From Candidatus Zixiibacteriota bacterium (GTDB taxonomy: Bacteria > Zixibacteria > MSB-5A5 > UM-FILTER-46-8), in contig WJIR01000176.1 of NCBI GenBank assembly GCA_014730175.1, positions 1-33,255 of the forward strand: DNA of 33,255 bases, given 5' to 3'. The notes below the pieces were generated by a model, which did not search any database, was not told the DNA's origin, and worked only from the letters and a program-made list of their open reading frames with translations. Position 1 is the first letter of the stretch; each line of letters begins with the position of its first letter. Below are positions 5,121-27,113 of this stretch, piece by piece. The translations under genes were made by a program, and so were the position numbers.

Positions 5121-5944
5121 TTTTGGCTATAAGCAAAAATCTCTTATCTCGGGTACTTGTGGGGATAATCGCTATCCCTGTTATTATTTATATATCTCTG
5201 TATGGTGGATTACCGATAGTTGTATTCGCCTCTATGGTATCATTGATCGGCAGCTATGAGCTGTCATACCTCCTGTCAAAATCCGGACGCTTCGTTAAAT
5301 ATCTACTTCCTTTACCCGTAGCGATTGTAACCTTTTTGTTTTCGTATCAGCAGTTTCAGATCGGGCTCCTGGTGGTAATCATAACCGCTTTGATTATGGC
5401 TCTGGTAGCGGTTTTCTCCAACAATGTTCAGACCCTAAAAAACAGTTTGGTAAATTCCATATTTGCCATGATCTATCCCGGAGTGTTGCTCGCCGCCATT
5501 CCCCTTCTTTCTCACTTTGACCCTGATGGGGGAAAATGGCTTGTTGCTATGTTTATCATTATCTGGTGTGCCGATACCGCCGCTTATTTCGGCGGTAGGG
5601 CAACCGGCAAGAGGAAACTGGCATCGGAAGTAAGCCCGGGCAAAACGGTGGAGGGTTTATGGTGGGGATTTTTGGGTGCATTACTTTCAGCCGTGGTTAT
5701 ATGCTTTACGTTTCTACCGCCCTCCGAGTTAACATTTTTACTACCTGTGTCGATAATCATATCCGGGATAGGCGTAGTAGGGGATCTTTTCGAATCTTCG
5801 TTGAAGAGAGCGGTTGATGTTAAAGACTCCTCGCGGATTATTCCCGGACACGGTGGTGTTCTGGATCGATTTGATTCGGTGCTATTTGCGGCGCCGTTGC
5901 TTTACATCTTTTTACGCTTGCGAGATTTAATGGCAGGGATTTAA
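5117..5944 (+). CDS. cdsA: phosphatidate cytidylyltransferase (CDP-diacylglycerol synthase)
   Basis: Integral membrane enzyme that makes CDP-diacylglycerol from phosphatidic acid and CTP, the branch point of phospholipid synthesis. The 275-aa product is almost entirely hydrophobic helices. It ends with the family signature, seen here as SSLKRAVDVKDSSRIIPGHG followed by GVLDRFDS, with the conserved Lys, Asp and PGHGG-DR-D residues. There is no ATG near the 5' end. The TTG at 5117 overlaps the uppS stop, and a second in-frame TTG lies at 5123, so the exact start is uncertain by two codons. dxr and rseP, which often follow in other bacteria, are absent. Confidence 0.95.
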   Translation: MILAISKNLLSRVLVGIIAIPVIIYISLYGGLPIVVFASMVSLIGSYELSYLLSKSGRFVKYLLPLPVAIVTFLFSYQQFQIGLLVVIITALIMALVAVFSNNVQTLKNSLVNSIFAMIYPGVLLAAIPLLSHFDPDGGKWLVAMFIIIWCADTAAYFGGRATGKRKLASEVSPGKTVEGLWWGFLGALLSAVVICFTFLPPSELTFLLPVSIIISGIGVVGDLFESSLKRAVDVKDSSRIIPGHGGVLDRFDSVLFAAPLLYIFLRLRDLMAGI

Positions 5945-5952
5945 TTATTGCT

Positions 5953-7485
5953 ATGCAGGAATTCATTGAATCGCTACCTCTTACTCAATTAGAAACCATA
6001 GCGCTGGCGTTTGTTTATGCCGGTGTCGCTTATCTGGTTATAAGATTCTTACTGCGCTATCTCAAGCGCATCCCCACCATCTATAAGCACCGAAGGATAG
6101 CCCAGAGTGCTAACATCCTTTTTACGCTGTATATTTTGCTTTGGGGCTTGGGGCTAAGGGATAATATAGCCCAGGATGTAATACTCACTATTGTGTTGTT
6201 ACTTGCCGGATACCTGACCGTAGTCACAATCGAATATTCCATCTTCGATATGTTCCTGCATCGGGATCGAAGAACCGTTACTCCCGGATTACCCAGGGAT
6301 GTTCTTCGAATGGCGATTCTGCTAATCGTGGTTTATGCCGTACTACTGAGCGTGTTCAACTTAGATCTGTCCACGGTGTTGGTTTCATCGGCAGTTTTGA
6401 CCGCAGTTATCGGTTTAGCGCTTCAGGATTTGCTTAGTAATGTTCTTGCGGGAGTGGCGCTGCATATTGAAAAGCCATTCAAGGTGGGCGATTGGGTGCA
6501 AGTCGCCGGCCAGCAAGGTGAGGTTGTGGGGATAAGCTGGAGAGCGACACGTATAAAAACCCTCGAGAATAACTTTGTAATCATCCCCAACAATTCGATT
6601 TCACAAGCGGAGATTATAAATTATACTGAACCAGAACCGGTTCAGGGGCGCTTTTTAAATATCGGCACCAGTTACAATGATCCCCCCAATAAAGTCAAGA
6701 AAGCCGTAGAGGAGGTTGCCGCGCAGATTCCCGGTATTCTGAAAAACCCGCCGCCAAGCATGCGGGCTATCGAATACTCCGACTTTTCCATAAATTACGA
6801 ATGCAAATACTTCATTGATGATTATTCCATGCGAGAAGAAATCGGTGAGGAGTTCGTATCACGGCTTTGGTATAAATTTAAACGCGAAGGAATCGAGATT
6901 CCTTTCCCCATTCGCACCTTGCGTCCGATGGCATGGGCGGAAAGAATGAAAGAAGACGATGAGAAGGCTAACAGGAAAAAAGTCCGAAGATACCTGCGTT
7001 CACACGAGTTGTTTGCTGATTTATCCGATGAGGAGGTCGAGAAGCTTACCGAGGATTCCGCATTTCAGCTATACGGTGTAAACGAGGATATAATCATACA
7101 AGGCGATGAGGGGAATTCCATGTTCGTGATTATCTCCGGTGAAGCCCGGGTACTGGTTTCACAGAATGGACGCGAGGTGGAGATGGCGAGGTTAGGACCT
7201 GGCGAGTCTATCGGAGAGATGTCTCTTTTCACCGGTGAGAATAGGACCGCTACGGTTAGATGCGCACAGGATTCGGAACTGGTCGAGATTACCAGGGAGA
7301 ATTTCAAAGGTATATTGATGCAGAATCCCGCGCTGGTTGAACAGCTTAGCGAGAAAATCACGACACGTTCCAAGGAGATAAAGGAGACACTGCAGGCAAC
7401 CTCCGAATTGCAGTTTCAAAATGACAGACCCGAGAACGAAAAAGAGAGCTTCGTAAGAATAATAAAGAATTTCTTTGAGTTGTAG
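5953..7485 (+). CDS. MscS-family mechanosensitive channel with C-terminal cyclic-nucleotide-binding domain
   Basis: Inner-membrane small-conductance-type channel fused to a cNMP-binding module (510 aa). Hydrophobic segments lie near residues 15-37, 52-68, 75-101, 118-137 and 141-171. The last is the pore helix, rich in Ala, Gly and Val, leading into ALQDLLSNVLAGVAL. The MscS beta domain follows (HIEKPFKVGDWVQV, GEVVGISWRATRIKTLENN, IPNNSI). A CAP/CRP-like domain occupies about 351-475, with a phosphate-binding-cassette-like GESIGEMSLFTGENRTATV where Glu422 and Arg431 sit at the positions used for cyclic nucleotide contact. Ligand-gated relatives (bCNG type) are known. It starts 8 bp after cdsA and probably shares its transcript. 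The ligand and the degree of stretch gating cannot be read from sequence. Confidence 0.92.
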   Translation: MQEFIESLPLTQLETIALAFVYAGVAYLVIRFLLRYLKRIPTIYKHRRIAQSANILFTLYILLWGLGLRDNIAQDVILTIVLLLAGYLTVVTIEYSIFDMFLHRDRRTVTPGLPRDVLRMAILLIVVYAVLLSVFNLDLSTVLVSSAVLTAVIGLALQDLLSNVLAGVALHIEKPFKVGDWVQVAGQQGEVVGISWRATRIKTLENNFVIIPNNSISQAEIINYTEPEPVQGRFLNIGTSYNDPPNKVKKAVEEVAAQIPGILKNPPPSMRAIEYSDFSINYECKYFIDDYSMREEIGEEFVSRLWYKFKREGIEIPFPIRTLRPMAWAERMKEDDEKANRKKVRRYLRSHELFADLSDEEVEKLTEDSAFQLYGVNEDIIIQGDEGNSMFVIISGEARVLVSQNGREVEMARLGPGESIGEMSLFTGENRTATVRCAQDSELVEITRENFKGILMQNPALVEQLSEKITTRSKEIKETLQATSELQFQNDRPENEKESFVRIIKNFFEL

Positions 7486-24077: not shown

Positions 24078-24264
24078 AATTGTACCTCATACTTCTTCTA
24101 TTAATGACGTTTTTTCTTATAAGAAGGTTTCAAAAAATCGATTCAATATCATTGTGTACAAATGCAATTCATCCAGTTCTACGATTATGTGAATGCCAGG
24201 TTAAGCGTACCCACACAAACTAACATATTGTACACTTAATGGCGTATAAAATTCAACATAAAAA

Positions 24265-24291
24265 AATCGGACAGGTCGCACCTGTCCGATT
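24265..24291 (-). terminator. terminator of the hppA-alaX unit
   Basis: A perfect 12-bp stem, AATCGGACAGGT (24265-24276) with ACCTGTCCGATT (24280-24291), has a CGC loop. It is followed on the - strand by a run of seven T (24266-24260, the last two overlapping the stem). It lies 27 bp after the alaX-like stop at 24319. Confidence 0.9.
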
Positions 24292-24318
24292 CATAGATTG
24301 ATAGAGATCCATGGAGGA

Positions 24319-25056
24319 TTAATAAACCACAAATGCCAGTCTTTTATTCCCCCCGGCTTTCTCCTCGAAGTACTTATTATGTTTCGGAATCAACCTGATA
24401 CTGCCGATTTCCCGAGTGCTGCGCAGAACCGTTCCGTAACAGATATCCACGCAGAGATCATCGATTTTAACAAGGCGAACCTTGTCGACATATTCGGGAA
24501 TAACGACGCTCTCAGCTTTTCGCTGCTCTATGTAATCGGTTATGTTCTTTCGCGGAACATAAAATATCTCTATAGAGCGATCCTCCTGCACAATGCGATT
24601 AGCTTCGCGCTCGACCTGCTTGGCGCAATTATCAGCAGTATTGCAGTCACGCAGATCGATATGAGTGATATGATCCCGACATTCCAGGTTTCCATTTATC
24701 CTACCGCCGCAGATCTCCAGCGCAAGCTGTGCCATTATATGCATAGCGGTATGGTTTCTCATTACTCTGTAACGTCGAGCCCAATCGAGATAACACCCGA
24801 CATCGGCGCCAACCGGAGGTGGTTTCTCCTTAATGTAATGCAGGATACGGTCGCCATCGAGTATCGTTTTCGAAACCGACAGCAACTTAGTTCCCAAAAC
24901 CAGGGTACCTTTATCATGCGGTTGGGGGTGGGCGATCTCATCGCCATGGGGATTAAGCACAGTATGAGACAACTCCACCTTACGACCGGAAACTTTAGTA
25001 ACCGTGGCTTTACAATCCTTTAGATATGAATCTTCGAGATACAGTGCTTTAGTCAT
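24319..25056 (-). CDS. AlaX-like alanyl-tRNA editing domain protein, divergent
   Basis: A 245-aa protein related over its length to AlaX-type trans-editing factors, which hydrolyse Ser- or Gly-tRNA(Ala). It starts MTKALYLEDSYLKDCKATVT, has the core motif RRYRVMRNHTAMHIM with a zinc-type HxxxH (HTAMH) and GGRINGN, and ends with the STREIGSIRLI and KRLAFVVY strands. Two active-site motifs are altered. The usual GGGQPxD loop reads HGDEIAHPQPHDKG, and the CGGTHV zinc motif reads CYGTVL, with Val replacing the His ligand. The ATG at 25056 has GGGGGAG upstream and matches the family start; in-frame ATGs at 25080 and 25104 are alternatives, the latter overlapping hppA. Editing activity is therefore uncertain. 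Confidence 0.8.
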   Translation of the reverse strand: MTKALYLEDSYLKDCKATVTKVSGRKVELSHTVLNPHGDEIAHPQPHDKGTLVLGTKLLSVSKTILDGDRILHYIKEKPPPVGADVGCYLDWARRYRVMRNHTAMHIMAQLALEICGGRINGNLECRDHITHIDLRDCNTADNCAKQVEREANRIVQEDRSIEIFYVPRKNITDYIEQRKAESVVIPEYVDKVRLVKIDDLCVDICYGTVLRSTREIGSIRLIPKHNKYFEEKAGGNKRLAFVVY

Positions 25057-25088
25057 AGCATCTCCCCCTGCCTTATCCATAATATTTC

Positions 25089-27113
25089 CTATCTTAAAAG
25101 CCATCCAACATGATTGGCAAACAACGGCGCTAACACCAGAGAAACAATTGCCATCAACTTAATCAGAATATTCATTGACGGACCCGAAGTATCTTTGAAA
25201 GGATCGCCTACGGTGTCTCCGACTACCGCTGCCTTGTGCGCATCGGAGCCTTTACCTCCGTGTGCGCCGCCTTCAATATACTTCTTTGCGTTATCCCAGG
25301 CGCCGCCCCCGTTAGCCATCATCAATGCCATCATCACTCCGCTGAGTGTAGAGCCGGCCAGCAATCCGCCCAAGGCTTCCTTGCCCAGGAATAATCCCAC
25401 TATAACCGGAGCGATAACAGCCAGAACTCCCGGCACCAACATCTCTTTGATCGCCGAGGTAGCTGCGATAGCAACACATGTTTCGGAATCCGGCTTAGCC
25501 TTACCTTCCATTAAGCCGGTAATTTCCTTAAACTGCCTTCGGACCTCATTCACCATGGCGAACGCCGCCTTACCGACTGCGGTCATGGTTAGAGCCGCAA
25601 CTAAAAATGGTAATAATCCGCCCAGAAATAATCCGATAACCACATTGGAACTAACCAGGTTTATAGATTCCAAACCTACAGCGGTTGTGTATGCCGCAAA
25701 TAACGCCAGAGCGGTTAACGCTGCCGAACCGATGGCGAAGCCCTTTCCGATTGCGGCGGTTGTATTGCCCAAAGCGTCAAGACGGTCTGTTATGCTGCGT
25801 ACATCGGGACCGAGTCCGGACATCTCCGATATACCACCGGCATTATCGGCGATGGGTCCGTAGGCATCGACCGACATGGTCACACCTATGGTCGCCAACA
25901 TGCCGACCGCGGCAATGCCTATTCCATACAATCCGGCAAGGCCGTAACCGGCGAAAATCGCAACACAAATCATTATCACCGGCAATGCTACCGATTCCAT
26001 CCCGACAGCTAAACCGGTTATAATATTGGTTGCGGGACCGGTTTCCGAAGCCTTAGCGATGTTTCGGATCGGTTTTGCGGCCGTATAATACTCCGTAAGT
26101 AAACCCAGCACAATACCGGCTAACGAGCCGATAAGCACAGCCCAGAATACTTTGGTTTCCACGCCCAAATATCCAGCGAGGAAATACGATGCAATCCACA
26201 TGACAACAGCGCCAACATAAGTAACAATTCTCAAAGTAGCAGCCGGATTCATCGTCGAAAATATCCTGACCGACAACACTCCCAACATGGAGGCTATAAT
26301 ACCTGCGGTGGGAATCATCAAGGGATAGAGCATATATCCCGTCATCCCGGGATTGTTCATCGCCATAGCCGCGCCAAGGACCACGGTAGCTATAATGGAA
26401 CCGACATAAGACTCAAACAGGTCAGCGCCCATACCCGCCACGTCGCCGACATTATCACCTACGTTATCTGCGATAACCGCAGGATTACGGGGATCGTCTT
26501 CAGGGATTCCCGCTTCGACTTTGCCGACGAGGTCGGCGCCAACATCCGCTGACTTAGTGTAGATTCCACCGCCGACACGTGCGAATAGAGCTATCGAAGA
26601 AGCTCCCATCGAGAAGCCGGTGATAGATTGAAGGTATTCCCACCCTCCACCAGCCTGAAGATCCTGTCGGGTAAAAAACCAGAAAAGCACACCGACACCG
26701 AGTAAGCCGAGCGATGCCACCGACATACCCATCACGGCGCCGCCGGAGAACGCAATCGTTAAAGCATTACCCTGCCCCTTATCTTTGGCAGCCTGGCATG
26801 TACGGACATTCGCCTTGGTTGCGGCTGTCATTCCGAAGAATCCGGCTAACATTGAGCAACCGGCGCCGATAAGAAACGAAATGCCCGACCATAAACCTAT
26901 AAATACAATCAAGAGTACCGCAACAATGGCTATGAAAAAGATGAGAATGGAGTATTCTTTTCTTAGAAAAACCATTGCTCCTTTGTGAATGGTTTCCGAG
27001 ATATCGGTCATCAGCTCTGATCCGGTTGGATTCCGCTTTATTGCGAAATATAAACCCAAGGCGAACAACAATCCGATGACACCCAACAAAGCAGCAAGCA
27101 ATCCTTCTGTCAT
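25089..27113 (-). CDS. hppA: membrane-bound ion-pumping pyrophosphatase (K+-dependent type)
   Basis: A 674-aa, roughly 16-helix inner-membrane pump that couples PPi hydrolysis to Na+ or H+ export. Catalytic motifs are [19 protein letters not shown] (about 182-200), DNVGDNVGD (216-224) and [17 protein letters not shown] (632-648). [10 protein letters not shown] at 449-458 has Ala at the position that is Lys in K+-independent enzymes, so K+ dependence is expected. The gate region reads [12 protein letters not shown], with Glu234 where Na+-pumping relatives have it (plant H+ pumps shift this Glu by a helix turn), so Na+ transport is compatible but not proven. Its stop lies 32 bp before the alaX-like start, and the two probably share a transcript. 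Confidence 0.96.

What the first reader, a model, noticed from the sequence alone, without database searches (positions are those of the whole stretch)
24319..25056. AlaX-like editing factor with a lost zinc ligand and rewritten substrate loop
The protein aligns with AlaX over its whole length and keeps HTAMH, yet the second zinc motif reads CYGTVL instead of CGGTHV (His to Val) and the GGGQPxD loop is replaced by a longer, His-rich HGDEIAHPQPHDKG. The frame is intact to both ends, so this is not simple decay. The extra His residues in the loop could supply a replacement metal ligand, or the fold may have gained another substrate.
Basis: partly seen in the sequence, partly recalled or inferred. 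Interest (0 to 1): 0.6.

Follow-up and report, generated by a model that had tools for sequence, protein, structure and literature searches.

The report
Conserved AlaX relative, altered metal site
A small relative of the enzymes that remove wrongly attached amino acids from transfer RNA has, in one bacterial lineage (Zixibacteria), kept its fold and three of its four metal-binding residues but replaced the fourth and rebuilt its active site with conserved histidines, so it probably has a shifted chemistry or substrate.

Summary
The observation largely holds. A 245-aa AlaX-M-like ORF (24319-25056, minus strand) has CYGTVL where AlaX has CGGTHV, and a longer, His-rich loop. One correction: the loop carries a 4-residue insertion and lost the GGG, but keeps the family's QPxDxG core. 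It is not decay or error. Orthologs at 86, 82 and 51% identity in three other Zixibacteria keep both changes, with synonymous sites saturated. All 10 His of the window protein are conserved in the 51% ortholog (P about 0.001), as are whole blocks (AHPQPHDKG, RNHTAMH, LECRDHITHIDL, CYGTV). All 31 canonical AlaX compared have His at the Val position. The clade is well supported, found in 4 of 133 genomes of the phylum and nowhere else among about 1,700 genomes searched. The model (pLDDT 93) has the AlaX-M/AlaRS editing fold. The gene usually follows hppA and ends at a terminator; in one genome hppA has decayed while this gene stays intact. Host AlaRS editing sites are normal. Best reading: an active, metal-dependent aminoacyl-tRNA deacylase with a rebuilt site and shifted specificity. 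A binding-only protein is the main rival. No model coordinates were available, so ligand replacement was not tested.

The parts
24319..25056 (-). AlaX-M-like variant gene, 245 aa, tRNA_SAD fold
   Evidence: ORF and start; NF040865 and PF07973 matches; model pLDDT 93.3 and Foldseek to AlaRS/AlaX-M
24907..24954 (-). Altered loop, residues 35-50 NPHGDEIAHPQPHDKG: 4-residue insertion, GGG lost, QPxDxG core kept; H37, H43, H47 invariant in orthologs
   Evidence: alignments A2 and A3, codons
24739..24753 (-). HTAMH (residues 102-106), first canonical metal motif, kept
   Evidence: H102 and H106 invariant in 35 of 35
24661..24687 (-). LECRDHITH (residues 124-132), rewritten segment, invariant in the four orthologs, with C126, H129, H132 absent from 31 canonical AlaX
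24424..24441 (-). CYGTVL (residues 206-211), second metal motif: Cys kept, Gly to Tyr, His to Val
   Evidence: V210 and Y207 in 4 of 4 orthologs, His and Gly in 31 of 31 others
24364..24381 (-). C-terminal 6-residue insertion (residues 226-231) with invariant H226, F230, E231
24264..24292 (-). Intrinsic-terminator-like hairpin (13 pairs, then T run) just after the gene
25089..27113 (-). hppA-like membrane pyrophosphatase gene, 32 bp upstream; same order in L012 and L050, remnant in L011
   Evidence: identification as hppA from the protein's sequence and my knowledge of the family

Best explanation
This is a lineage-specific, functional branch of the free-standing AlaX-M / AlaRS editing-domain family (tRNA_SAD fold) in Zixibacteria. 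Shown: the fold, three of the four canonical metal ligands (H102, H106, C206), purifying selection, and conserved rewriting of three segments (31-47, 124-132, 206-215) plus a new C-terminal insertion. Inferred: it still binds a divalent metal through H102/H106/C206, with the fourth position taken by water or by one of the new conserved His/Cys residues, and it acts in trans as a deacylase on an aminoacyl-tRNA with a specificity different from plain Ser-/Gly-tRNA(Ala) clearance, which a normal AlaRS editing site in the same cell already covers.
For: Orthologs keep every change at 51-86% identity with saturated synonymous sites. All 10 His conserved in the 51% ortholog, P about 0.001. H102, H106, C206 kept in all four; Q45, D48, G50 kept. 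Subfamily-specific invariant residues cluster at the loop, 124-132 and the metal motif. Confident AlaX-M/AlaRS editing fold. Clade 100/99 with trait columns removed. The gene stays intact in G002 although the neighbouring hppA has decayed. AlaRS editing sites HTATH + CGGTH intact in G000, G002 and G003; no other tRNA_SAD protein besides AlaRS and ThrRS in these three.
Against: The lost His is one of the four zinc ligands described for AlaX-S (PMC3680381), so metal binding may be weak or gone. No activity, metal or distance data. Only four sequences define the subfamily, three of them from one family.
Confidence: 0.5

Rival explanations
1. The protein has lost hydrolytic activity and works as a binding protein (tRNA acceptor end, synthetase or ribosome partner), as other retired members of this fold do.
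For: A metal ligand is lost. Precedents: the AlaX-like domain of Plasmodium WRS lacks the zinc ligands and is judged non-hydrolytic (PMC3680381); Foldseek also matches a mitoribosomal large-subunit protein, which I recall is mL39, a retired ThrRS relative.
Against: Three of four ligands and all His are invariant, while the Plasmodium domain lost all four. Conservation is highest around the catalytic motifs.
Confidence: 0.25
2. An ordinary Ser-/Gly-tRNA(Ala) editor in which the fourth ligand is replaced without change of substrate.
For: Full-length AlaX-M fold and retained QPxDxG. No other AlaX found in G000, G002, G003, so it could fill the usual AlaX role.
Against: The segments next to the motifs are also rewritten (Y35N, G207Y, 124-132), more than a ligand swap needs.
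Confidence: 0.15
3. A hydrolase of a non-tRNA substrate, perhaps tied to the neighbouring membrane pyrophosphatase or to the envelope genes around it.
For: tonB-hppA-this gene order kept in two families; rewritten segments around the site.
Against: Overall AlaX-M fold including the N-terminal barrel is kept. The gene persists in G002 after hppA decayed, so the link is not obligatory.
Confidence: 0.07
4. A private mutation, sequencing error or decaying gene.
For: None found beyond the lost canonical residue.
Against: Independent assemblies (PFXJ01000129, WJIJ01000047, G010) share the residues with different synonymous codons.
Confidence: 0.01

Closest known systems
AlaX-M / AlaXp-M trans-editing factors (PDB 2e1b, 9iuw, 3kew; NCBIfam NF040865)
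   Same: Fold and full-length alignment (TMt 0.83-0.90, 23-26% identity), HxxxH, Cys of CxxxH, QPxDxG core, no C-Ala domain
   Different: His of CxxxH is Val, Gly is Tyr; GGG lost with a 4-residue insertion; 124-132 rewritten; extra C-terminal insertion
AlaRS editing domain (PDB 2zze, 2ztg, 3wqy)
   Same: Best structural match (TMq 0.86-0.90) and best PDB sequence match
   Different: Free-standing here; the host AlaRS keeps its own canonical site
AlaX-like domain of Plasmodium falciparum tryptophanyl-tRNA synthetase (PMC3680381)
   Same: AlaX fold with Val in place of the fourth zinc ligand
   Different: There all four ligands are lost (Asp, Ser, Asn, Val); here three are kept and invariant
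DGGTH AlaX-M (L024, L053, L054, L065-L070)
   Same: AlaX-M relatives with one changed metal-motif residue
   Different: Cys to Asp (still a possible ligand), His kept, canonical GGGQPxDxG loop in most

Membership tests
tRNA_SAD (PF07973) | Gathering score 24 bits | tested here: inconclusive
   Window 25.3 and L005 27.8 pass; orthologs L012 20.5 and L023 16.8 fall below. The fold match is clear.
AlaX-M (alanyl-tRNA editing protein) | AlaX-M fold: N-terminal barrel plus SAD domain, about 230-245 aa, no C-Ala | tested here: met
   Model and Foldseek; 245 aa ORF
AlaX-M (alanyl-tRNA editing protein) | HxxxH zinc motif | tested here: met
   HTAMH, invariant in 35 of 35
AlaX-M (alanyl-tRNA editing protein) | CxxxH zinc motif | tested here: not met
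   CYGTV in 4 of 4 orthologs; His at this position in 31 of 31 others
AlaX-M (alanyl-tRNA editing protein) | Gly-rich loop GGGQPxDxG | tested here: not met
   GGG absent, 4-residue insertion; QPxDxG half kept
AlaX-M (alanyl-tRNA editing protein) | NF040865 curated cut-off 300 bits | tested here: not met
   156.9 bits; but canonical comparators also miss it (160-286 bits), so this feature does not discriminate
AlaX-M (alanyl-tRNA editing protein) | Hydrolysis of Ser-/Gly-tRNA(Ala) with bound zinc | not testable with these tools
   Needs purified protein
AlaX-L | C-terminal C-Ala domain (about 400 aa) | tested here: not met
   ORF ends at 245 aa; AlaX-L-sized frames of about 400 aa are common elsewhere in the phylum
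AlaX-S | SAD domain without the N-terminal barrel (about 157 aa) | tested here: not met
   The N-terminal half aligns to AlaX-M/AlaRS; AlaX-S structures cover only about 160 alignment columns

The most novel reading that the evidence does not exclude
A new subfamily of the AlaX/AlaRS editing fold in which the conserved zinc tetrad has been rebuilt (fourth His replaced, new invariant His/Cys recruited) and which clears an aminoacyl-tRNA or aminoacyl ester that no known SAD-family enzyme handles.
Probability: 0.3. Interest if true: 0.6.

Novelty: new variant of a known kind. Interest (0 to 1): 0.4.

Why it matters
The histidine of the CxxxH motif in AlaX and AlaRS editing sites is regarded as a zinc ligand. 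A natural branch that has lost it, kept the other three ligands and fixed new histidines around the site is a ready-made test of how such a metal site and its specificity can be rebuilt in evolution. It may also point to an unrecorded mischarging problem in Zixibacteria.

Tried and rejected
Decay, error or private mutation: rejected by orthologs. Spread beyond Zixibacteria: the viral contig scan gave none; plasmids gave only relatives under 32% identity (residues not inspected one by one); profile searches around four centres (387, 386, 387 and 400 genomes) gave no other member, and the matches read residue by residue were all GTH. Genome contigs gave only the same Zixibacteria plus canonical AlaX; its exact peptide patterns could miss distant members. 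Compensation for a defective AlaRS or ThrRS: not supported, both editing sites are canonical in G000. Obligatory link to hppA: rejected, hppA is a remnant in G002 while this gene is intact. Measuring distances from the loop His to the metal site: not possible, model coordinates are not exposed. Papers on AlaX-S structure and AlaX tRNA specificity were not held, and none describing this variant was found.

Full report
What is there. The ORF at 24319-25056 on the minus strand encodes 245 aa. An upstream in-frame ATG at 25104 overlaps hppA, but the ATG at 25056 follows a GGGGGAG ribosome-binding-like stretch and corresponds to the starts in G002 and G010. It matches the AlaX-M model nearly end to end (NF040865, 156.9 bits, cut-off 300), the AlaRS models, and Pfam tRNA_SAD at 25.3 bits. 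PDB sequence matches are AlaRS and AlaX.

Observation check. Against 31 canonical AlaX domains from Zixibacteria, Proteobacteria and other bacteria (A3), the window protein has Val at a position that is His in 31 of 31, and Tyr at one that is Gly in 31 of 31. HTAMH and the Cys are kept. The loop has a 4-residue insertion and no GGG, but Q45, D48 and G50 belong to the canonical QPxDxG and are invariant in all 35.

Not decay. Family and phylum searches and genome contigs give three orthologs: G002 = PFXJ01000129 (86%), G003 = WJIJ01000047 (82%), and G010 in another family (51%). All keep the loop, HTAMH, LECRDHITHIDL, CYGTV and the C-terminal insertion. Synonymous sites are saturated while dN is 0.10-0.47. 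All 10 His of the window protein are conserved in the 51% ortholog (hypergeometric P 0.001). In a tree with the trait columns removed the four form one clade (100/99) that joins the AlaX-M-like rows (99/97).

Distribution. 4 of 133 held genomes of the phylum carry it. In G009, the congener of G010, the contig ends at the 3' end of hppA, so absence there is not shown. Profile searches of 387, 386, 387 and 400 genomes around four centres found no other member. Matches from other lineages that were read residue by residue (L053-L054, L056-L059, L065-L074) are CGGTH or DGGTH AlaX. The viral contig scan gave none and plasmids only relatives under 32% identity.

Context. The order tonB - hppA - this gene is kept in the window, L012 and G010. 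In the window the gene starts 32 bp after hppA and is followed by a strong intrinsic-terminator-like hairpin; hairpins with T runs also follow in L011 and L012 (sequence printed, read by eye). In G002 the space upstream holds remnants of hppA (tblastn E 7e-7 to its C-terminus) while this gene is intact, so hppA is not required for its retention; G001 lacks both. G000, G002 and G003 have canonical AlaRS editing sites, G000 has a canonical ThrRS site, and no further tRNA_SAD protein was found in these three genomes.

Structure. The AlphaFold2 model is confident (mean pLDDT 93.3, pTM 0.91; loop blocks 81-85). Foldseek finds AlaRS editing domains (TMq 0.83-0.90) and AlaX-M (TMt 0.83-0.90), and more weakly ThrRS and a mitoribosomal large-subunit protein, which I recall is mL39, a retired ThrRS relative. 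Coordinates are not exposed, so ligand geometry could not be tested.

Mechanism. In AlaX-S the zinc ligands are His9, His13, Cys116 and His120 (PMC3680381), and in AlaRS the zinc helps recognise the serine hydroxyl (PMC8857464). Here three ligands remain and the fourth is Val. The AlaX-like domain of Plasmodium WRS, judged inactive, has Asp, Ser, Asn and Val at these four positions. Keeping three ligands invariant, fixing new His (31, 37, 43, 47, 129, 132, 226) in all orthologs, and rewriting the segments around the canonical motifs is the pattern of a working site with changed properties. H31, H43, H129, H132 and H226 occur in none of the 31 canonical sequences. I infer a metal-dependent deacylase with shifted specificity (0.5), with a binding-only protein as the main rival (0.25). 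That the loop core lies near the site is inferred only from Q45, D48 and G50 being among the few residues invariant in all 35 sequences, together with H102, H106, G208 and T209.

Novelty. No paper found describes an AlaX subfamily with these residues, but the library holds only open-licence papers. It is a new variant of a known kind: 'works like an AlaX' is likely, while 'is an AlaX-M' in the strict sense fails on the CxxxH motif and on the Gly-rich motif.

Noticed in passing
L011 5542-5573 (G002:C111:21567-21598): A solitary CRISPR-type repeat (GTCCCCCCCCGCGTGGGGGCGTGGATTGAAAC) between tonB and the decayed hppA. It differs at one base from the repeat of a 16-copy array on contig C3 of the same genome; another lone near-copy (2 mismatches) lies at C116:7609-7640. 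It may be an off-target repeat integration or a relic.
   Followed up: partly
L011 about 5680-5970: hppA pseudogene or remnant: a similar start and a C-terminal match with stops, most of the gene deleted, while the downstream AlaX variant is intact. The genome has only a distant (49%) pyrophosphatase elsewhere.
   Followed up: partly
L024, L053, L054, L065-L070: A widespread AlaX-M group reads DGGTH instead of CGGTH: the Cys ligand, which is essential in E. coli AlaRS (C666), is Asp. It could be a second natural metal-site variant.
   Followed up: no
window 24319-27113: The hppA-like pyrophosphatase gene and the AlaX variant are adjacent in two families; the reason for the pairing is unknown.
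   Followed up: partly
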